A stretch of DNA of 38,674 nucleotides, taken from assembly GCA_002737705.1 (NCBI GenBank), contig NSIM01000015.1, forward strand, positions 1 to 38,674. Reading direction: 5' to 3'. Source of the stretch: Flavobacteriales bacterium. Lineage in GTDB: Bacteria > Bacteroidota > Bacteroidia > NS11-12g > UBA955. The position numbers and the translations under genes were made by a program. Shown here one piece after another: positions 5,271 through 38,674 of this stretch (position 1 is its first letter; each line of letters starts with the position of its first letter). Below the pieces are notes generated by a model. That model made no database searches, was not told the origin of the DNA, and saw only the letters and a list, made by a program, of their open reading frames with translations.

Positions 5271-5294
5271 CTGCTCAATAGGCTGCTCAATAGG
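5271..5294. repeat. 12-bp tandem duplication across a stop codon
   Basis: CTGCTCAATAGG occurs twice in a row (5271-5282 and 5283-5294). The second copy contains the reverse-strand TGA stop (5289-5287) of the leucine-dehydrogenase-like gene. Confidence 0.9.
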
Positions 5295-6390
5295 TGCTTT
5301 GAACCAACATTATATCTTGTATTCGCTTTTGGGCATGCAAAATGGCAGCTTGCTGACTATTTACATTGTCCCGTTCTGATTTTTTGTAAATTTCAAGAAT
5401 GGTATTGTAAATATTTTCGGTTTGGGCCATTGCATTTTCACGAACATATCCATTGTATTCTGAATAAACATTGATTAACCCCCCGGCATTTATTACAAAG
5501 TCGGGAGCATAAATAATGCCACTTGATTTCAATGCATCTCCGTGTATTATTTCGTCTTCTAATTGATTGTTCGCTGCACCTGCAATAATCTGGCATTTCA
5601 ACTTGGGCAAAGTATCGTCATTGATAATCCCACCCAAGGCACAGGGAGCCAAAATATCAACATCTAATCCTATAATGTCTTCTGCACTTACTATAATAGC
5701 ACGGTATTTATTGGCAGCTATTTGTAAAGCAGCATCGTTAATATCTGCCACATAAAGCTTTGCATTTTCCTTGTGCAAATAATCTAAAAGGTGCATGCCT
5801 ACCTTGCCAATTCCAACGACAGCTATACTTTTACCAGACAAACTTTCATTTCCCCAAGCTTTTTTTGCCGATGCTTTGATACCCATATAAGTCCCATAAG
5901 CAGTAACTGGAGAAGGATCTCCACCACCACCCATACTTTCAGGCAAACCCACTACATGATCGGTTTCCATTTGAACGTATTCCATATCTTTGGTTGTGGT
6001 CCCAACATCCTCAGCAGTGATATATTTCCCGTTTAGATTATCAACATAACGACCAAATTTTCGCATCAATGCTTCTGATTTCATGGTTTTTGGATCTCCG
6101 ATGATGACCGCTTTTGCACCCCCCAAATTCAACCCTGCAATAGAGGCTTTATAAGTCATTCCTCTAGACAAGCGCATTGCATCCCTAATGGCGTCTTTTT
6201 CATGGGCATATTGCCACATTCGCGTGCCACCCAATCCGGGACCCAATACAGTGTTGTGAATCGCAATAATTGCCTTAAGTCCGGTTGCTTGATCTTGACA
6301 AAGCACAATTTGCTCGTGTTTTGTTTCCTCTAAATCCGCAAATAAATCAAAAGAAGTTGCAGACAGATTCTCAGTTTTAATATCGTCCAT
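5287..6390 (-). CDS. Leucine-dehydrogenase-type Glu/Leu/Phe/Val dehydrogenase
   Basis: 367 residues, matching the short octameric leucine/phenylalanine dehydrogenase class rather than the ~420-450-residue glutamate dehydrogenases. These enzymes interconvert branched-chain or aromatic amino acids and their 2-oxo acids with NAD. Visible motifs are GPGLGGTRMW (glycine-rich substrate loop), MTYKASIAGLNLGGAK with the catalytic lysines, the TAEDVGTTTKDM region, and a Rossmann motif VVGIGKVGMHL. A separate true glutamate dehydrogenase lies at 9995-11269, which supports a non-glutamate substrate here. An exact TATCTTTG box lies 12 nt before the ATG. A 12-bp tandem duplication covers its stop codon. 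Confidence 0.9.
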   Translation of the reverse strand: MDDIKTENLSATSFDLFADLEETKHEQIVLCQDQATGLKAIIAIHNTVLGPGLGGTRMWQYAHEKDAIRDAMRLSRGMTYKASIAGLNLGGAKAVIIGDPKTMKSEALMRKFGRYVDNLNGKYITAEDVGTTTKDMEYVQMETDHVVGLPESMGGGGDPSPVTAYGTYMGIKASAKKAWGNESLSGKSIAVVGIGKVGMHLLDYLHKENAKLYVADINDAALQIAANKYRAIIVSAEDIIGLDVDILAPCALGGIINDDTLPKLKCQIIAGAANNQLEDEIIHGDALKSSGIIYAPDFVINAGGLINVYSEYNGYVRENAMAQTENIYNTILEIYKKSERDNVNSQQAAILHAQKRIQDIMLVQSTY

Positions 6391-6457: not shown

Positions 6458-7456
6458 TTACGTCAATGTGGGTATAGGTCTTGGAGAATATCTTGCTGCC
6501 ATTGAAGCGATTGCACGGATATGGTCTGGAGTAGTTCCACAACAACCCCCAACAATATTAACCCAACCTTCCTTACACCACTCCTCCAAAACAAGGGCCA
6601 TCCCCTCAGGTGTATCGTCGTATTCTCCAAATTCGTTGGGCAATCCAGCATTCGGATAACAACTAATAGGAACCCAAGCAACACGAGACAATTCTTCAAT
6701 ATACGGGCGCATTTGGGGTGCCCCAAGTGCACAATTTAATCCAACACTCAATAGATTGCCGTGTGAAATAGATATCCAAAATGCCTCGGGAGTCTGCCCG
6801 CTTAGGGTTCGCCCACTATTATCGGTGATGGTACCACTCACCATGACAGGAATGGTCAAACCACGTTCATCCTTAATTTCATTGATAGCAAACAATGCCG
6901 CTTTGCAGTTAAGGGTGTCAAAAACAGTTTCTACCAGTAACAAATGAACTCCTGCATCAATCAAAGCAATACTTTGCTCACGATAACAGGCCACCAAATC
7001 ATCAAAAGAAACAGCACGGTAACCCGGATTATTTACATCTGGCGATAAACTAGCCGTTTTATTGGTCGGCCCAATGGCGCCAGCCACAAAACGGGGTTTC
7101 TCGGGTGTTTTACGGGTGAATTCAGCAGCGGCCTCGAGTGCCAATCTTACAGCCTCGGTATTTAATTCCTTCACATAATCGACCATGTGGTAATCGAGCA
7201 TGGAAATCGAATTTGCATTAAACGTATTGGTTTCAAGGATATCTGCACCCGCATCCAAAAAAGCACGGTGGATGTCAGCAATAATTTCAGGTTGGGTAAG
7301 CACCAATAGATCATTGTTGCCTTGTACGGCGTGAGGGAAATCTGCAAAGCGGGTTCCACGGTAATCTGCTTCTGAGAATTTGTGTTTTTGTATCATGGTG
7401 CCCATGGCACCATCGATAATTAAAATACGTTCTTGAATGAGTGTTTGAATTTTCAT
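6458..7456 (-). CDS. metH: Homocysteine S-methyltransferase domain of (split) methionine synthase
   Basis: 332 residues corresponding only to the N-terminal homocysteine-binding barrel of cobalamin-dependent Met[11 protein letters not shown] (14-23), LETNTFNAN (74-82), [16 protein letters not shown] (207-221), the zinc ligand Cys242 in GLNCALGA, and Cys305/Cys306 in [10 protein letters not shown] are all present. The folate, cobalamin and activation domains are absent, so the rest of the enzyme must be a separate protein, an arrangement I believe is frequent in Bacteroidota. ATG 7456 overlaps the stop of the upstream gene (ATGA), implying translational coupling. A betaine- or S-methylmethionine-type methyltransferase is less likely, given the close match to MetH. 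Confidence 0.92.
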
Positions 7457-8343
7457 TGATTATAGAAAATTAGGTATTGATTTAAGGCTCTAGCCAATAA
7501 TGACAAGGCTTCTTCAGGGGTTATTTCATTGTTCGAGTTTAGGCTGGCTTCAACATCTACAGTCAATCCCACTTTTGAGGCCAACATCAGTGGTGAGGGA
7601 TTGGCAATTCCCTCTTTGTTGGGATAACGGAAAACAAGGTGGCCCTTTTTCCCTTTCTCGATTTTTGGGAAATAGGCCGATTGGGACAATCCATATTGGG
7701 GTTTCGTACTATAAAAAATCATGTCTGGATCGTCTTCGTAAAGAAATTTGACCGTTGAATTTTGCATGATGGCATTCGGTTTATTGCTGAATATTAAACC
7801 CAATACCGTCTCATTTAGGGCCGTATTTACGACTGTATCTTTGGGTATATAGACTACGAGTGCTTTGGATTTAAACGCGATATATACATTTTTATCTTTG
7901 CATTTGGCATAGTAATAATTGCCCTTGTCTACTGATAATGCAAGCAAGCCATTCTGGAAGGCTTGTTGAAAAAATATTTTAAACTTGGCTTCTGAACTGA
8001 GTGAAAGACAGAAAAAAATGCCCTCCTTCATTCCGAATACCAGCACATCAGAATACAAACCAATGCCAGGAGTTTTGGGGTCTTTGATTTTTTTGAATAC
8101 CGCCAAATGAGAAATGGTCTCTACAAGTGTGTCAATAGCCGCTGGCGGCTTGGGTGACTCAGAAAAATCTGATCGGAGCTGCTTGGTTTGAACGTGCAAA
8201 AACCAGTTCGATTGATCTGGAATGAGTTGCAAAAGTCTTGTTTTTGCATTGAAATTATAACTCAAGTAAAAACCCACAAGCAATACCGTCAACCCCACAA
8301 ATATCATTAAGGTAAATACAATTCTCCTAAACCCTTTATCCAT
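7453..8343 (-). CDS. Unknown membrane-anchored protein coupled to the MetH domain gene
   Basis: 296 residues. An N-terminal transmembrane segment (about residues 8-28, [20 protein letters not shown]) is followed by a ~265-residue domain predicted to face the periplasm. I recognise no family. The domain alternates beta-type and amphipathic stretches ([30 protein letters not shown]). The frame stays open upstream to 8511, but that part is low-complexity and crosses a promoter-like TTACTTTG (8352-8359), so ATG 8343 (protein start MDKGFRRI) is the start. Its TGA overlaps the ATG of the MetH-domain gene by 4 bp. The operon link is clear, but a functional link to methionine synthesis is not shown. 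Confidence 0.75.
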
Positions 8344-8465
8344 TGAGACTGCAAAGTAACAACACAGATACCAAAGTTTTAGAATTTCAGAAGCGATTGC
8401 GGTTGTTCGTCTGTCGGGCCGACAGGATAGTCGAAATAGAACGCAAACCCCCAACGAAAACCCAC

Positions 8466-8528
8466 AAACAACCAAAACGATTCCCCTAGAATAAGCCAAC
8501 GAAACCCTCAAACAAGCAAAACGATACC
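8466..8528. repeat. Imperfect 19-bp direct repeat
   Basis: AAACAACCAAAACGATTCC (8466-8484) and AAACAAGCAAAACGATACC (8510-8528) match at 17 of 19 positions with a 44-bp period. It may be a local duplication. Confidence 0.6.
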
Positions 8529-8922: not shown

Positions 8923-8945
8923 AAAAGCGCCCACAGGGCGCTTTT
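8923..8945 (-). terminator. Rho-independent terminator of the Cys-rich protein gene
   Basis: A 10-bp perfect stem, AAAAGCGCCC and GGGCGCTTTT, with a 3-nt loop. Read on the reverse strand it is followed by a run of T, as expected downstream of the gene ending at 8967. Confidence 0.85.
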
Positions 8946-8966: not shown

Positions 8967-9302
8967 TTAGACTTTTTTACAGCAAGGCTTCTGACAATTT
9001 GGAGTTATACAAGATTTCTCTTCAGTGGCCGCACTTGAATTTGCTTCACTACCCCCACATTTTTGTTTGGCAGAACTAGCAGCAGAACCTTTTTTCTTAC
9101 AACACTCTTTCGATTTGGCAGTAGATTCAGATTTGCTACAAGAAGCTGCGGAGCCTTCTTTTTTGCAACAAGGTTTTGCAGAAGTAACTTCTACTTTAGC
9201 CACTTCAACAGAAACAGGACTTTGGGTATTAGAAGCCTGTTGTGCATGGGAAGACAACACAAAACCTGCGATGAACAATCCTAAAAGACATATTTTTTTC
9301 AT
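8967..9302 (-). CDS. Small exported cysteine-rich protein with CCKK repeats
   Basis: 111 residues. The signal peptide is about residues 1-20 (KKICLLGLFIAGFVLSSHA). The mature part is Lys/Ser/Ala-rich with paired cysteines: CCKK at 45-48, 67-70 and 107-110, plus single Cys at 55, 82, 98 and 103. The unit CCKKxGSAAS repeats with a 22-residue period (45 and 67). I recognise no family. The spacing suggests binding of soft metals or disulfide formation in the periplasm; that is inference. ATG 9302 is chosen over an upstream in-frame codon (9344), because an exact TATATTTG box lies between them and because the signal peptide starts at 9302. It has its own promoter and terminator. Confidence 0.7.
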   Translation of the reverse strand: MKKICLLGLFIAGFVLSSHAQQASNTQSPVSVEVAKVEVTSAKPCCKKEGSAASCSKSESTAKSKECCKKKGSAASSAKQKCGGSEANSSAATEEKSCITPNCQKPCCKKV

Positions 9303-9321: not shown

Positions 9322-9329
9322 CAAATATA
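9322..9329 (-). promoter_or_regulatory. -7 box for the Cys-rich protein
   Basis: Exact TATATTTG on the reverse strand, 19 nt before ATG 9302, in the short gap after psd. Confidence 0.45.
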
Positions 9330-9334
9330 ACACA

Positions 9335-9991
9335 TTATTTCCATTTTGCAATCACGGTTTCCCCTCCAATTGTCTTTTGGCCAATTTCTACTGTAACGTC
9401 TGCGTTTAAAGGAAGATACACATCAATTCGAGACCCAAATTTAATGAATCCATATTCATCTCCTTTCGACAATTCGTCACCAGGCTTAACATAGCAAACG
9501 ATTCTTCTTGCCACAGCTCCGGCAATTTGTCTGAATAACACTTCTTTCCCATTCTCTTCCATTACTACCGAAGTTCTTTCATTTTCGGTACTGCTTTTTG
9601 GATGCCAAGCTACCAAATATTTTCCTTTAAAATATTTGTAATAGACCACTTTTCCAGAGATAGGAACGCGGTTTACATGAACATTCAACGGCGACATAAA
9701 AATACTGATTTGTCTGCGTCTATCCTTGAAATACTCCAATTCTTCAACCTCTTCAATTACAACAACCTGGCCATCCGCTGGGGCAATAATACTTCCAGGT
9801 TCTTGGGGTGTACTGCGGAGAGGGTTTCTAAAAAATTGAACAACCAGAACAAAGAAAATAAAGGAGAGAATCAAAAATATTGATGCAAAAAGGCTGTTTT
9901 CACCTGCCAAAAAACGAATCCCTGCATTGAATCCTATAAGAATTAACGCAGTAAATATGAGTATGGTAAATCCCTCCTTGTGTAAACGCAT
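9335..9991 (-). CDS. psd: Phosphatidylserine decarboxylase, short form
   Basis: 218 residues, the short class of proenzyme. It converts phosphatidylserine to phosphatidylethanolamine at the inner membrane. Two hydrophobic segments (about 8-30 and 33-53) anchor it. The conserved PADG is at 71-74, MSPLNVHVNR at 99-108, and the self-cleavage site is Gly186-Ser187 in FGSRIDVYLP; the serine becomes the pyruvoyl group. The start lies 3 bp after the stop of the glutamate dehydrogenase gene, so the two are probably co-transcribed. Confidence 0.93.
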   Translation of the reverse strand: MRLHKEGFTILIFTALILIGFNAGIRFLAGENSLFASIFLILSFIFFVLVVQFFRNPLRSTPQEPGSIIAPADGQVVVIEEVEELEYFKDRRRQISIFMSPLNVHVNRVPISGKVVYYKYFKGKYLVAWHPKSSTENERTSVVMEENGKEVLFRQIAGAVARRIVCYVKPGDELSKGDEYGFIKFGSRIDVYLPLNADVTVEIGQKTIGGETVIAKWK

Positions 9992-9994
9992 GAA

Positions 9995-11269
9995 TTAAAA
10001 AGATCCCCGAAGTTTTAAGGTGCTGGCAACCTTGTCCAAAGCGACAATATAAGCTGCGATTCTCATATCAACACTGTATTTTTCGCTGGTGGCATATACA
10101 TTGTCAAACGCTTGTTTCATCACCCGGTCGGCCCTGCGATTGACACGTTCCTCTGTCCAATAATACCCCAATCGATTCTGAACCCATTCGAAGTATGAAA
10201 CTGTAACCCCACCTGCATTTGCCAAGATATCGGGTACTACCAAAATCTTTTTCTCATTGAGAATATGGTCTGCTTCTGCTGTTGTAGGTCCATTGGCTCC
10301 TTCAACAATTAATTTCGCTTTAATACGAGAAGCATTTTCGGGGGTGATTTGGTCTTCCATAGCTGCGGGTACCAAAATATCACATGGCAATTCTAGTAAC
10401 TCTTCATTGCTAACTTTTACCCCCCCTTCAAAACCTTCTAGGGTTTTATTCTCACTTTGTTCAACATAAGCGATTGCCTTTTCAACATCAATTCCATCTT
10501 CATTAAAATAGCCACCAGTCACATCAGAAATTGCAACAATTTTTACTCCGATTTGGGCTATCAATTTAGCAGAAATACTGCCAACATTCCCGAATCCCTG
10601 GACGACACAAGTGGTTTTGGTTGGGTTCATCCCCAATTTCGCCATCGCGCTGCGGGTGCTCACCATAACCCCCCTACCGGTCGCTTCAACACGACCCAAA
10701 CTACCCCCCAAAATAAGGGGTTTCCCCGTAACAACTGCATAGGAATTGTGACCAGAAATTTTGCTAAATTCGTCTACAATCCAAGCCATTTCTTGGGCAC
10801 TTGTACCCATATCAGGGGCTGGAATATCTTTGTCAGGACCAAAAACATGCCTCATAGAAAGTGTATATGCACGCGTTATTCTTTCCAACTCCCCTTTACT
10901 CAAACAACGGGGATCACATTTAATACCCCCCTTAGCTCCACCAAAAGGAACATTGACCACTGCACACTTCCAAGTCATCCATGCCGCCAGGGCTTTTACC
11001 TCATCAACATTTACATCTAAACTATAACGAATTCCTCCTTTGGATGGCCCCAGATGTACACTATGCACAACCCGATAGGCTTCGAATACCCTTATTGTTC
11101 CATCATCCATTGTAACAGGAATATTTGCAGCAACCACTTTGTCGGGAACCCGCAAAACATTGGCGAATTGCTCATCCAAACCCAAAATATCTTTTGCTTC
11201 ATCGAAGCGCCTTTGCATACTCTCTAGTGGATTATACTGTGGTACTCCACTTTGATTTACGACTGTCAT
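9995..11269 (-). CDS. gdhA: Glutamate dehydrogenase
   Basis: 424 residues, the hexameric ~420-residue class. It interconverts glutamate with 2-oxoglutarate and ammonia. The substrate site shows KGGIRYS (78-83), catalytic Lys101 in WMTWKCAVV, and PFGGAKGGI (108-116). The Rossmann motif is VVQGFGNVGS, and ...DILANAGGVTVSYFEW is the typical late motif. NAD or NADP preference cannot be settled by eye. It is first gene of a probable two-gene unit with psd, and an exact TATTTTTG promoter box lies 28 nt upstream. Confidence 0.95.
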   Translation of the reverse strand: MTVVNQSGVPQYNPLESMQRRFDEAKDILGLDEQFANVLRVPDKVVAANIPVTMDDGTIRVFEAYRVVHSVHLGPSKGGIRYSLDVNVDEVKALAAWMTWKCAVVNVPFGGAKGGIKCDPRCLSKGELERITRAYTLSMRHVFGPDKDIPAPDMGTSAQEMAWIVDEFSKISGHNSYAVVTGKPLILGGSLGRVEATGRGVMVSTRSAMAKLGMNPTKTTCVVQGFGNVGSISAKLIAQIGVKIVAISDVTGGYFNEDGIDVEKAIAYVEQSENKTLEGFEGGVKVSNEELLELPCDILVPAAMEDQITPENASRIKAKLIVEGANGPTTAEADHILNEKKILVVPDILANAGGVTVSYFEWVQNRLGYYWTEERVNRRADRVMKQAFDNVYATSEKYSVDMRIAAYIVALDKVASTLKLRGSF

Positions 11270-18284: not shown

Positions 18285-18402
18285 TCTGTATTGTGTTGAT
18301 TGGATTGTTCGCAATGACCCAATTCACTGAAGTGCCAGGTATGTTTTTTAAGCCGAGCCTGCATCCCATTGTTTACCCCCCAAAAAACCGCCTGCCCAAA
18401 GA

Positions 18403-18473
18403 GAGATCTTCTCCTCCAAGTGAGATCTTCTCCTCCAAGAGAGACCTTCTACAACAAGAGAGACCTTCGCTCC
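18403..18473. repeat. Four tandem 19-bp units at the 3' end of the GNAT gene
   Basis: Units start at 18403, 18422, 18441 and 18460 (GAGAYCTTCTCCTCCAAG-like). The first two are identical over 18 bp (GAGATCTTCTCCTCCAAG); the third and fourth diverge (GAGACCTTCTACAACAAGA, GAGACCTTCGCTCC). Units 3 and 4 encode the last residues (ERRSLLL) and stop of the reverse-strand gene; units 1 and 2 lie beyond it. Confidence 0.85.
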
Positions 18474-34294: not shown

Positions 34295-34306
34295 CGAAAT
34301 TAATTG

Positions 34307-37300
34307 ATGGAAACGGATAAGATTTCAAGTGGATTTGGTCGCAGTTTACGATGCATTTTTACAGGGTTGGTATTGATGTTTTTTTTGCAATCGCCTTTGT
34401 TCTCTCAAGCCCCATCAACGGGTAGTTCAACTTCTGCTGTGGTGAAGTCAAAAATGCCGATGGCCATGCCGCTGGTGGATACGACCATCAAATGGGTTCA
34501 GTTGATGTTGTCGCCGCGGCCGAATTATTACGAAGTAAAACGCGCCTTTGAGCTACATTTTGGCGGCGTGGTACCATACAAAGGACAGGGGTATAAGGTT
34601 TTTAAGCGTTGGGAATATCGGGTGATCAATCATTTGGATAGTGCGGGTTATGTGAATTGGAATTTTGGTGTGATAGACGAGTTGGCCTACAATATTGTGA
34701 CTGGAAGTTCGGGTTCGGGTGGTGGTTCAGGTTCTGGCAGCGGTGGAGGCAGTGGCGGGCCCACCGGGGGCAAGCCGGTCAATGGTCTGAATGGCGGAAA
34801 ACCGGTGGCGCCTGCCACATGGTGCCCCACCGCCGGTAGGTGGTCGGCGGTGGGGCCCGTGAAGCACCCCTACAACCAATCATCGCAGCCCACAGGAACT
34901 GGTAGAATCAATGGAATTGCCTTTCATCCCACCGATACCAATACTTTTTTTGCCCTTGCACCCCAAGGTGGCGTTTGGAAAACCACAGATTATGGAGCCA
35001 ATTGGAGTCTGTTGTGGGGCGCAGGGAATGGGGCAAAAACATCGGCGACAACGCCTTCAAATCCTTTCTTGACAATTGGAGTGAGTTCAATGGTGGTGTC
35101 GTACAGAAATCCTGATACGATGTATATCGGTACTGGTGATCGAGATGCTGGAGACGCTCCAGGCTATGGGGTCTTGATGTCGTCCGATGGAGGAAAAACT
35201 TTTGTATCACGCAATTCAGGCTTTGGGAATTACCCAGTAAATCGTTTGGTGATGCATCCAAAAAATTCGGCAGTGCTGTTGGCAGCCAATAACTTAGGGA
35301 TTTCTAAGTCCACCAATTCTGGTAAAGATTGGACCCCCGCGAATCCCTTCTATAATATTTCTGCCAATTTTACAGATTTGGTTTATCATCCTTACAATCC
35401 AAACATTGTTTACGCCAGTGGGAATGGTACATTTTTTCGAAGTACAGACGGAGGAGATAATTTCACACAAATTTCAAATGGTTTGCCAACCACGGGAATG
35501 CAGAGAGGACAAATTGCAGTGTCAAAAGCAGATCGCAGTAGGGTTTACTTCCTTGTCGCCGCCGGGTCTCGTTTTCAAGGATTATATCTTTCCGTAGACA
35601 GCGGAATTAGTTTTGTTAAACAGACTACTTCCCCTGCCAATATTTTGGGATACAGTGAATTAGGGGACGACGGTTCCGGTCAAGCCTGGTATGATTTGGA
35701 TATTTCCGCCGACCCATATAATGCAAATACGGTATATGTGCATGGAATCAACATTTGGAAATCTACCGATGCCGGTGTCACTTTTACGATATGTGGACAT
35801 TGGGTAGGTTCAGGTGATGCCGATGACATTCATGCCGATCAGCATATTGGTGAATTTAACAATACGGGAAAAACCCTCTTCGCGGGAAATGATGGCGGCG
35901 TTTACTATTCAAAGAATGGGGGTAAGACTTGGGTCAATATAACCAATGGCATTCAGAATTCTCAAATTTACCGATTGGCAGTAGCCCAATCTACAGATGA
36001 TTTGGGTGCCCATGGATACCAGGATAATGGTTCAATGCAGCATGATAATGGCGAAGTGTTTACCTATTATGGCGGTGATGGGATGGATTGTGCGGTGGAT
36101 CCCAAAGATGAGCGATATGTCTATGGATCGTATGTTTTTGGAGATATTTATCGGGCGATCGAAAAAAATGAAATTGTCACAATTGCTGCAAATGGTGTAA
36201 ATGGTATCAATGAAGGCGGGGGTTGGTTAACGCCCTTTGTCTTGCAAGAAGGAAATCCCAATCGGATGTTTGCTGGATACAATAATATATGGCGCTGCGA
36301 CAGTGTGAAATCTAAAACCAAAATCGTTTGGACAAAGTTGACTGCTGGGTGGACGGGGAATGTGCGGGAAATCAAAAGCAGCACTTCAAACAAACGGCAT
36401 CTGTATGCAATTCGCGGAGATGGGAAAGTGTTTTTCTGCAGGAATTCAGAGGCTATATCACCCACATTTATTAACATTACACCGTCGAATTTTTCGTTAC
36501 GGACATTGGAAGTTGATCCGAAAGACACGAATAAAATTTATGGTGCTAGTACAACGGCAATTTATCAAAGTACAAATAATGGATTGAGTTGGTCGGCCTT
36601 GCCATTGACATCAATAAATGTAAAGGCGGGAATTAATTACGGGGTAATCACTGTGATAAAGGCAGATTCTAGTGCTTCCCCCACGGGATTGTACATAGCT
36701 ACTGATAGAGCAATGTATTATCACAATCCATCAACGGCATTAACGGATGAGTTTTCTAATGAGTTGCCGCTATGGATGCATATTACAGATATCGACATTT
36801 ATCATTCACCCAAGGGAAGGGATTACAGTTTTATTTACATCAGTACCTATGGTAGGGGTGTTTGGAAAAGTCCTTTGTTTGATGATGGTTCGGGTCTTTA
36901 TAAGGCAAAAATGTTTGCTTATGATTCCATTTTGTCGGTGGGTGGAAATTTGAAATTGCAGGAAAGAATTATTGCATCGGTCAATAATACTACACCCATT
37001 GAATGGTCGCTGACGCCCACAACGGGTTATAGTTGGACAAAGGGGAATGCCAACTCAGCCAATCCAGAATTGAAATTCACGAGTCCAGGGATTTATAATG
37101 TCTCACTGACAGCAAGAAGTTGTTTGGCATCCAATACCGAAACCAAAAAAGTATGGCTCCGCGTTTTTCCGAGCCCGGCATCGCCCAGTTGCTTGAGTAA
37201 AACCAATTATCAGACATCAAATTATGGCATTGGAATTTTTAAAGTGATACTGTCGGACAACCAGTTTGAATCTGGGACGTATTTTGATGATGGTGAGTAT

Positions 37301-38674
37301 TTGGATAAATCCAAAGACAAAGTATTTCGGGTAAAACCCAATGTGAGCTACTCCGTAAAAGTGAAAGTGGGACTTTACAACGCAGAGAATGTCCGCGTGT
37401 TTATTGATTACAACAACGATGGCAAGTTTCAATCTTATTTGGGTGAGGTATCTGCGCAGTTATCCGCAACTCCCTCGTCTTATGCGGATGTAAAAATTAA
37501 AACCCCTATCAACCTAAAAAAGAATCAGGGATTGAGAATGCGGGTAATCAGTGACTATAACAATATCGACACAACGGGTTGTGGTACCTGTGGATATGGA
37601 CAGGCCGAGGATTTTAGTTTGGTATATGAAAAAACCACTGCCAATTTCAAGGTGGATAAAACGGCTTTTTGTACTGGAGATACTGCGAGATTTACTGACA
37701 AGTCGGATGGTCTCATTGGACTATACGAATGGGATTTTGGTGCAGGTGCAGTGCCAGCGAAAGCAACGGGAAAAGGGCCTTGGACAGTGAAATACACGAG
37801 TCCAGGTTTTAAAACCGTAAAACTGCGATTGAATAACAGAGAAGATAGTTTGGTGAAAACATCCATTTTGGAAGTCATTGCTTTGCCCAATGGGATGGTA
37901 AGAGTCAAGGAAGGTGGTAATCCAATTTGTGAGGGAAATCGGTTGGTATTGGCCGTGTCCGACAATCAATCGTTGCCGCTGAAGTACAATTGGTTTAAAT
38001 TGGATTCTCCATGGAATTTATTGGTGTCGGATAGTTTATTTACGGTTGCAAAAATTTCATTGTCCGATTCGGGGAAATATGTAGCCGTTTTGGATCACCG
38101 CGGTTGTTTGGACACCACATCGGATTTGTCCTTGAAAGTTTGGGCTAAGCCACAGGCAAAGATTGGATATGATTACAATTATTCGCCATGCCTAAGAGGA
38201 AATAAATTTACATTTACAGATCAATCTTCGGTGTTAAATAGCTCGATTTCTTCGAGATCTTGGAATGCGGGTAGTCCAATTAAATCAAGTACTGTTGCGA
38301 CTTTTAGTCAGGTATTTACATCGGCGGGAAATCAAACTATACAATTGATCGTAGCCTCGGCCGAGGGTTGTTTGGATACAGAAACGGTTGTGGTAAAGGT
38401 GAAAGGGCATCCCGTATCTCAATTCACTTTTGCCAAAGCGGCGCAATGCGACAAAAATAACCGATTTGATATCGTGAATGCGAGTGTAAATCCGGTAAGC
38501 AGTGGGGGCGGTTCTTTGTTGTATATCTACGATTGGAAGGATGGTGTTTCGGGTGCTGATGTAGCCAATGCAAGTCACAATTTCTCGGGGGGTGGCAAAT
38601 ACAATGTCCAGTTGATTGTGAAAAATGCGGTTGGCTGCGCGGATACATCGTTCCAAATGGCTACGGTGGTAAAT
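34307..38674 (+). CDS. Giant secreted Asp-box propeller / GEVED / PKD protein (runs off right edge)
   Basis: 1456 residues, still open at the window end. Layout: signal peptide (about 1-38, ...LVLMFFLQSPLFSQA); a short unknown domain (to ~125); a Gly/Ser linker (about 131-155); Asp-box repeats of sialidase/sortilin type (about 190-860), for example WKTTDYGANW, MSSDGGKTF, FRSTDGGDNF, WKSTDAGVTF, YYSKNGGKTW, YQSTNNGLSW; a GEVED-like domain (about 970-1105, VFIDYNNDGKF ... CGYGQAEDFSL); then PKD or Ig-like domains (about 1108 onward, YEWDFGAGAVP, SDSGKYVAVLDHRGCLD). Such proteins are cell-surface or secreted adhesins or hydrolases; a T9SS tail probably lies beyond the edge. I checked the frame at several points and it is continuous. 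Confidence 0.9.
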   Translation, partial: METDKISSGFGRSLRCIFTGLVLMFFLQSPLFSQAPSTGSSTSAVVKSKMPMAMPLVDTTIKWVQLMLSPRPNYYEVKRAFELHFGGVVPYKGQGYKVFKRWEYRVINHLDSAGYVNWNFGVIDELAYNIVTGSSGSGGGSGSGSGGGSGGPTGGKPVNGLNGGKPVAPATWCPTAGRWSAVGPVKHPYNQSSQPTGTGRINGIAFHPTDTNTFFALAPQGGVWKTTDYGANWSLLWGAGNGAKTSATTPSNPFLTIGVSSMVVSYRNPDTMYIGTGDRDAGDAPGYGVLMSSDGGKTFVSRNSGFGNYPVNRLVMHPKNSAVLLAANNLGISKSTNSGKDWTPANPFYNISANFTDLVYHPYNPNIVYASGNGTFFRSTDGGDNFTQISNGLPTTGMQRGQIAVSKADRSRVYFLVAAGSRFQGLYLSVDSGISFVKQTTSPANILGYSELGDDGSGQAWYDLDISADPYNANTVYVHGINIWKSTDAGVTFTICGHWVGSGDADDIHADQHIGEFNNTGKTLFAGNDGGVYYSKNGGKTWVNITNGIQNSQIYRLAVAQSTDDLGAHGYQDNGSMQHDNGEVFTYYGGDGMDCAVDPKDERYVYGSYVFGDIYRAIEKNEIVTIAANGVNGINEGGGWLTPFVLQEGNPNRMFAGYNNIWRCDSVKSKTKIVWTKLTAGWTGNVREIKSSTSNKRHLYAIRGDGKVFFCRNSEAISPTFINITPSNFSLRTLEVDPKDTNKIYGASTTAIYQSTNNGLSWSALPLTSINVKAGINYGVITVIKADSSASPTGLYIATDRAMYYHNPSTALTDEFSNELPLWMHITDIDIYHSPKGRDYSFIYISTYGRGVWKSPLFDDGSGLYKAKMFAYDSILSVGGNLKLQERIIASVNNTTPIEWSLTPTTGYSWTKGNANSANPELKFTSPGIYNVSLTARSCLASNTETKKVWLRVFPSPASPSCLSKTNYQTSNYGIGIFKVILSDNQFESGTYFDDGEYLDKSKDKVFRVKPNVSYSVKVKVGLYNAENVRVFIDYNNDGKFQSYLGEVSAQLSATPSSYADVKIKTPINLKKNQGLRMRVISDYNNIDTTGCGTCGYGQAEDFSLVYEKTTANFKVDKTAFCTGDTARFTDKSDGLIGLYEWDFGAGAVPAKATGKGPWTVKYTSPGFKTVKLRLNNREDSLVKTSILEVIALPNGMVRVKEGGNPICEGNRLVLAVSDNQSLPLKYNWFKLDSPWNLLVSDSLFTVAKISLSDSGKYVAVLDHRGCLDTTSDLSLKVWAKPQAKIGYDYNYSPCLRGNKFTFTDQSSVLNSSISSRSWNAGSPIKSSTVATFSQVFTSAGNQTIQLIVASAEGCLDTETVVVKVKGHPVSQFTFAKAAQCDKNNRFDIVNASVNPVSSGGGSLLYIYDWKDGVSGADVANASHNFSGGGKYNVQLIVKNAVGCADTSFQMATVVN
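34824..34856. repeat. 12-bp GC-rich inverted repeat inside the coding sequence
   Basis: GCCCCACCGCCG (34824-34835) and CGGCGGTGGGGC (34845-34856) pair perfectly around a 9-nt loop, in codons ~173-184 of the giant protein. Confidence 0.8.

What the first reader, a model, noticed from the sequence alone, without database searches (positions are those of the whole stretch)
8967..9302. Exported cysteine-rich protein with CCKKxGSAAS repeats
A 111-residue secreted protein with ten cysteines, six of them in three CCKK pairs with a 22-residue internal period, its own promoter and a strong terminator. I know no family with this pattern. A role in periplasmic soft-metal binding is plausible. It is the kind of short gene that is often missed.
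Basis: partly seen in the sequence, partly recalled or inferred. Interest (0 to 1): 0.5.

Follow-up and report, generated by a model that had tools for sequence, protein, structure and literature searches.

The report
Exported cysteine-lysine protein beside psd
A short, probably exported protein rich in cysteine and lysine, found just behind a membrane-lipid gene in many relatives of this bacterium, probably soaks up toxic metals such as copper in the cell envelope; that role is inferred, not measured.

Summary
The gene is real: 111 aa (window 9302-8967, minus), signal-like N-terminus, ten cysteines in a tail made mostly of K/C/A/S/T/E/G. It is a conserved family matching no Pfam, NCBIfam, PADLOC or PDB entry above cut-off. 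All 14 same-genus genomes with psd found have it; 8 of its 10 mature Cys columns are invariant there, 7 of those with silent codon changes. It lies behind psd (phosphatidylserine decarboxylase), same strand, in 33 of 34 genomes of its GTDB family, 7 of 21 of a sister family, and the best-psd genome of 12 of 39 other families sampled in the class. It usually has its own promoter and terminator. Over 64 members K:R is 1062:11 with almost no large hydrophobics, as in metallothioneins. DsbB and VKOR were not found in 20 of 20 relatives, MNIO enzymes in 0 of 39. In one other family the homologue sits beside an HMA-domain gene in 6 of 6 loci (two genera). Best reading: an envelope thiol sponge for Cu(I)-like metals, working like SilE but with cysteine; metal binding is inferred. 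The psd link is firm, its cause unknown.

The parts
8967..9302 (-). Coding sequence, 111 aa, K/C-rich protein
   Evidence: homologues in 14 of 15 same-genus genomes counting its own
9243..9302 (-). Signal-peptide-like segment, residues 1-20 (SHA|QQ)
   Evidence: Read by eye; M1 K2 K3, G13, A20, Q21 among the invariant columns; only helix in the AlphaFold model, residues 4-20
9138..9170 (-). Repeat 1, CCKKEGSAASC, residues 45-55
9072..9104 (-). Repeat 2, CCKKKGSAASS, residues 67-77, 22 residues after repeat 1
8973..8984 (-). C-terminal CCKK, residues 107-110, without GSAAS
9322..9351 (-). Bacteroidota-type promoter: TTG (9351-9349), 19 nt, TATATTTG (9329-9322); its upstream part lies inside the end of psd
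   Evidence: motif conserved in 53 of 64 members
8923..8945 (-). Terminator-like hairpin, 10 pairs, then T run
9335..9991 (-). psd, phosphatidylserine decarboxylase, the conserved upstream neighbour
   Evidence: PF02666 E 3e-47; synteny
9995..11269 (-). Glu/Leu/Phe/Val dehydrogenase, upstream of psd in the conserved block
   Evidence: PF00208 E 4.1e-81
7453..8343 (-). DUF4836-like protein, downstream neighbour (ATG start at 8343 preferred to the TTG ORF start at 8511)
   Evidence: PF16120 E 3.1e-6, 26.8 bits against a cut-off of 27; synteny
6458..7456 (-). Homocysteine S-methyltransferase domain protein, next in the conserved block
   Evidence: PF02574 E 1.1e-99

Best explanation
The protein is exported by Sec and stays in the envelope as an unfolded, positively charged chain. 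Its ten thiols, partly in vicinal CC pairs followed by lysines, capture thiophilic metal ions, most likely Cu(I), possibly Ag, Zn, Cd or Hg, and so buffer them outside the inner membrane. It works like SilE, but with cysteine in place of His/Met. Shown here: conservation, place behind psd, own promoter and terminator, composition, lack of a predicted fold, and no DsbB or VKOR match. Inferred: export and location, reduced thiols, metal binding, which metal, and the physiological role.
For: Cys columns kept in the genus, with both Cys codons used at 7 of the 8 invariant columns. Composition of 64 members: Cys 8.5%, Lys 17%, K:R 1062:11 (22 other window genes: 1.54:1), Leu 0.16%, Phe 0.03%, no Trp; the window protein's tail has no Met or His, so thiols are its soft-metal ligands. 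Tetrahymena metallothioneins show the same lysine excess and few Leu/Ile (PMC1808422, passages). CC 97 against 25 and CCK 85 against 5 in shuffles of 41 representatives. AlphaFold: mean pLDDT 42.9, only the signal helix. No DsbB or VKOR match in 20 of 20 relatives; odd Cys number in 17 of 41. In family f30 the homologue lies divergently beside an HMA-domain (PF00403) gene in 6 of 6 loci, with an ACR_tran gene 3-4 kb off in 2. SilE is a precedent for a disordered periplasmic metal sponge (PMC5008109, abstract).
Against: No metal, expression or location data. Lys-Cys adjacency is not above what the composition gives (129 against 124, sd 9.7). The CC counts come from a set chosen to hold at least one CC. 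The HMA link is confined to f30 (two genera); the same HMM found none in the other loci then held, and psd itself is not a metal gene. HMA genes are present in 20 of 20 relatives anyway, so a chance neighbour is possible. Other non-psd copies showed no metal gene by eye. Other thiol-oxidising enzymes were not searched. The model rests on three sequences.
Confidence: 0.5

Rival explanations
1. Thiol redox protein or cross-linked envelope material: the CC pairs form disulphides within or between chains, and the protein is a sacrificial reductant or a disulphide-knit layer.
For: Vicinal cysteines and a flexible chain suit cross-linking. The tail is K/A/S/T/P-rich like structural proteins; two members give a weak Pfam 'New_glue' hit (best E 0.0037).
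Against: No DsbB or VKOR match in 20 of 20 relatives. Odd Cys number in 17 of 41 representatives. HMA-domain neighbours in f30 are not explained.
Confidence: 0.2
2. A psd partner: a cationic envelope protein that binds anionic phospholipid, or assists or reports on phosphatidylethanolamine synthesis, the cysteines being secondary.
For: The place behind psd holds in 33 of 34, 7 of 21 and 12 of 39 samples; the tail is strongly Lys-rich.
Against: It has its own promoter in most members. psd occurs without it in 14 of 21 f2 genomes and 27 of 39 sampled families, and it occurs away from psd. Cysteines are the best kept residues apart from the signal region.
Confidence: 0.12
3. Precursor of a modified, copper-binding peptide like the bufferins: thiols are changed by an enzyme before export.
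For: Bufferin precursors also have Sec signals and Cys motifs (PMC12452194, passages).
Against: The MNIO family PF05114 is found in 0 of 39 relatives, with the control genomes Caulobacter vibrioides and Deinobacterium chartae found. No modifying enzyme is among its syntenic neighbours. Other modifying enzymes were not searched.
Confidence: 0.03
4. Loosely constrained low-complexity chain with no specific role beyond, for example, cysteine or lysine storage.
For: Length ranges from 75 to 209 aa and linkers change fast; G089 carries expanded CQGHA-type repeats.
Against: Cys columns are held while linkers change; CCK 85 against 5 in shuffles; promoter, terminator and place are conserved.
Confidence: 0.07

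Closest known systems
SilE / PcoE periplasmic metal sponge
   Same: Small exported disordered chain with repeated short metal-ligand motifs (SilE: PMC5008109, abstract; PcoE recalled).
   Different: SilE uses histidine and methionine motifs; here the window protein's tail has neither, only cysteine. No sil/cus operon around it in this window.
Metallothioneins
   Same: Small, Cys-rich, CC motifs, Lys instead of Arg, few Leu/Ile (PMC1808422, passages).
   Different: Signal-like N-terminus, lower Cys density (8.5%), no CxC pattern, Lys-Cys adjacency not above composition, no match to any metallothionein model.
Bufferins (MNIO-modified copper-binding peptides)
   Same: Sec signal, Cys motifs, copper chelation proposed here (PMC12452194, passages).
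   Different: No MNIO enzyme in 0 of 39 relatives.
Csp1 copper storage proteins
   Same: Exported and thiol-rich (recalled).
   Different: Csp1 is a folded four-helix bundle (recalled); here no fold is predicted.
PG1828 family lipoprotein (NCBIfam NF050142)
   Same: One member (L123) scores 24.4 bits.
   Different: Cut-off is 50 bits, and the match covers residues 1-59, the signal and linker, not the Cys part.

Membership tests
Bufferin / MNIO-modified peptide | MNIO enzyme (PF05114) in the genome, normally beside the precursor | tested here: not met
   0 of 39 relatives including the own genome; 2 of 14 control genomes positive
Bufferin / MNIO-modified peptide | Sec signal on a Cys-containing precursor | tested here: inconclusive
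   Signal judged by eye only; cysteines present
Metallothionein | Match to a curated metallothionein model | tested here: not met
   No family for the window protein at E 1 in Pfam, none above cut-off in NCBIfam; none for 34 members in Pfam at E 0.01
Metallothionein | Cys-rich, Lys-over-Arg, hydrophobic-poor composition | tested here: met
   K:R 1062:11, Leu 0.16%, Cys 8.5% in 64 members
Metallothionein | Lysines preferentially next to cysteines (mammalian type) | tested here: not met
   129 against 124, sd 9.7 in shuffles
Metallothionein | Metal-thiolate clusters | not testable with these tools
   Needs titration or mass spectrometry
SilE / PcoE | His/Met metal-binding motifs | tested here: not met
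   No His and no Met in the mature window protein
SilE / PcoE | Disordered in the metal-free state | tested here: inconclusive
   Mean pLDDT 42.9, only the signal helix, but three-sequence alignment
Csp1 copper storage protein | Folded helical bundle | tested here: inconclusive
   No helix predicted beyond the signal; the Csp/DUF326 model was not searched separately, though the Pfam scan gave no such hit
PG1828 family lipoprotein | Score above the NCBIfam cut-off (50 bits) | tested here: not met
   24.4 bits in L123; 2 of 34 members at E 0.01; none for the window protein

The most novel reading that the evidence does not exclude
A class-wide, thiol-only envelope counterpart of metallothionein that guards phosphatidylethanolamine-rich membranes: psd makes the amine lipid that attracts copper, and the gene behind it makes the sponge that keeps copper off that lipid. 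That phosphatidylethanolamine binds Cu(II) is recalled; two paper searches gave nothing usable on it.
Probability: 0.1. Interest if true: 0.75.

Novelty: new variant of a known kind. Interest (0 to 1): 0.5.

Why it matters
If the reading holds, many members of this Bacteroidota class carry an exported, cysteine-only metal sponge that none of the profile libraries searched here names. Its fixed place behind psd lets one find it although the sequence changes very fast, and makes a link between phosphatidylethanolamine synthesis and envelope metal handling directly testable. It also shows how disordered exported proteins can be traced by position and residue type where alignment fails.

Tried and rejected
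Bufferin idea: set aside after 0 of 39 MNIO. Known domains: only sub-threshold hits, several on the signal or on low complexity; PADLOC 0 of 34 members; PDB none; plasmid collection no match. A DNA-level tandem duplication behind the protein repeat: none reported over the gene. Lys-Cys adjacency as a metallothionein sign: not above composition. The class profile search (140 of 395 genomes at E 0.001) is not used as a count, because many weak hits cover only the first 30-50 positions, i.e. the signal; I read 26 of its loci, fetched further ones, and used position behind psd instead. A phylum sample (148 genomes, E 1e-6) gave 3 matches: the own genome and two of the same class, one covering only positions 1-34. 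How many of the 148 lie outside the class was not shown, so absence elsewhere is not established. Non-psd copies outside f30 lie beside genes with no metal link visible by eye; AlaDh (L226) and DUF2807 (L225) were confirmed by Pfam. Searches for the family in print: ('CCKK'), listings only; none of the titles and abstract starts shown described it. Searches gave nothing usable on PE and copper.

Full report
What is there. The minus-strand ORF 9302-8967 encodes 111 aa: MKK, a hydrophobic stretch and SHA|QQ, then a tail with ten cysteines and sixteen lysines and no Arg, Leu, Phe, Trp, Tyr, Met, His or Asp (scripts count residues 22-111). CCKK occurs at residues 45, 67 and 107. The first two are followed by E/K-GSAAS and lie 22 residues apart; the third ends the protein, 40 residues further on. 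A TTG-N19-TATATTTG promoter begins inside the 3' end of psd, and a 10-pair hairpin with a T run starts 21 nt after the stop.

It is a conserved gene. Counting its own, 14 of 15 same-genus genomes have it; the exception, G007, also shows no psd, so an assembly gap is likely. The own genome has one copy. Over 14 genus members, 8 of the 10 mature Cys columns are invariant and a ninth is kept in 13 of 14; both Cys codons occur at 7 of the 8 invariant columns, so the identity is not just recent descent. In the nearest relative (G012, 74% identical) ECCKKKG has become ECSSMKG while SCSK has become SCCK; the mature total stays ten.

It is tied to psd. The order dehydrogenase - psd - Cys gene - DUF4836-like - homocysteine methyltransferase is kept in the genus and in several other genera of the family. 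I then read the DNA behind psd without asking for similarity: an ATG ORF of 50-230 aa with at least one CC within 900 nt, same strand. Among genomes drawn as relatives it is there in 33 of 34 psd-bearing genomes of family f1 (32 within 130 nt; G030 at 728 nt; missing in G028) and in 7 of the 21 f2 genomes fetched (G053 not fetched). In G028 the Cys gene stands apart from psd but still in front of a DUF4836-like and a methyltransferase gene (by eye). In three genomes of genus g5 (G030, G099, G106) a 207-aa ORF lies between. Over all 80 psd loci, 65 have the ORF (64 distinct proteins); 25 of these 80 loci had been fetched because the profile hit there, so only the figures 33 of 34 and 7 of 21 are free of that bias. 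Of the 64, 61 lie within 130 nt of psd, median 42.

Beyond the order. From the visible part of the psd list I took 39 further families of the class, and in each the genome with the best psd score. A stricter test (signal-like start, at least 3 Cys and one CC in the tail, Lys 8% or more, few hydrophobics, within 400 nt, same strand) is met in 12 of 39; one miss had only 248 nt behind psd. With all genomes fetched it is met in 13 of 39 families and 17 of 56 loci. The same test finds one ORF elsewhere in the 160,387 bp of these loci, both strands, and that one is itself 898 nt behind psd. Eight loci chosen because the profile hit them were left out. The arrangement is therefore not chance and is old in the class, but 12 families are not 12 independent events, most sampled families lack it, and copies away from psd exist.

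Own transcript. TAnnTTTG lies within 60 nt upstream in 53 of 64 members (40 shuffles: mean 2.95, maximum 6), and a hairpin with T run starts within 60 nt of the stop in 48 of 64 (mean 0.2, maximum 1).

What the tail looks like. In 64 members: Lys 17%, Cys 8.5%, His 1.3%, Arg 0.18%, Met 0.21%, Leu 0.16%, Phe 0.03%, no Trp; K:R 1062:11 against 1.54:1 in 22 other window genes. Five Tetrahymena metallothioneins hold 83 Lys and one Arg with few Leu/Ile, and the authors note the same asymmetry in mammalian ones (PMC1808422, passages). CC and CCK exceed shuffling (97 against 25, 85 against 5; 41 representatives of a set that required one CC), but Lys-Cys adjacency does not (129 against 124). AlphaFold sees only the signal helix (mean pLDDT 42.9, three sequences).

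The compartment. DsbB (PF02600) and VKOR (PF07884) have no match in 20 of 20 relatives; among 14 control genomes they are found in 6 and 3. 17 of 41 representatives have an odd number of mature cysteines. Both lean towards free or metal-bound thiols without proving it; other oxidases were not searched.

Neighbours that speak of metal. All six f30 genomes listed have the homologue divergently beside a gene with an HMA domain (PF00403 E 9e-13, 2.5e-12, 5.6e-10 in three). An HMM built from those three finds the other three at E 9e-39 or better, and no HMA gene in any other locus then held. In two of the six an ACR_tran gene, CusA-like by eye, lies 3-4 kb away. The six come from two genera, so this may be one event. 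HMA genes are general in the relatives (20 of 20).

What it most likely is. An exported, disordered, cationic thiol sponge for soft metals. It works like SilE, with cysteine for His/Met, and resembles metallothionein in make-up, but by the tests made it is a member of neither. The psd link is a firm observation without a firm cause. In E. coli psd is under sigma-E and CpxR (PMC8138132, passages), so envelope stress is one possible common theme; that paper does not mention copper (0 occurrences).

Limits. Signal peptides were judged by eye. Families with divergent psd were not sampled. Nothing about metal, redox state or location was measured.

Noticed in passing
window 8451-8528: Imperfect 22-23 bp tandem repeat (3.4 copies) in front of the DUF4836-like gene; it makes the TTG ORF start at 8511 doubtful.
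   Followed up: no
window 34304-38674: Open frame of at least 1457 aa running off the window end; signal-like start, and repeats that read by eye like a large exported repeat protein. Explains the apparent lack of long ORFs there.
   Followed up: partly
window 18399-18468: 19-bp tandem repeat, 3.7 copies, 88% matches.
   Followed up: no
window 5287-6390: A second Glu/Leu/Phe/Val dehydrogenase-type gene, 4 kb from the one beside psd.
   Followed up: no
L077, L051, L053: A 207-aa ORF with signal-like start, no Cys and coiled-coil-like sequence by eye lies between psd and the Cys gene in three genomes of genus g5.
   Followed up: no
L097, L100, L103, L105: In these f2 genomes without the Cys gene, psd is followed within 10 nt by a 198-aa gene that reads by eye like an SprT-type metalloprotein.
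   Followed up: no
L240, L248, L249, L250: Non-psd copies of the Cys-rich gene lie divergently to an ABC-permease-like gene in several genomes, by eye; a second recurring neighbour.
   Followed up: no
L004 and L027 (genome G003): Two near-identical copies of the Cys gene on two short contigs, probably strain variants in the assembly.
   Followed up: no
genome G009, C47:5408-6061: A second psd-like gene (57% identical to the window's) on another contig; what lies behind it was not read.
   Followed up: no
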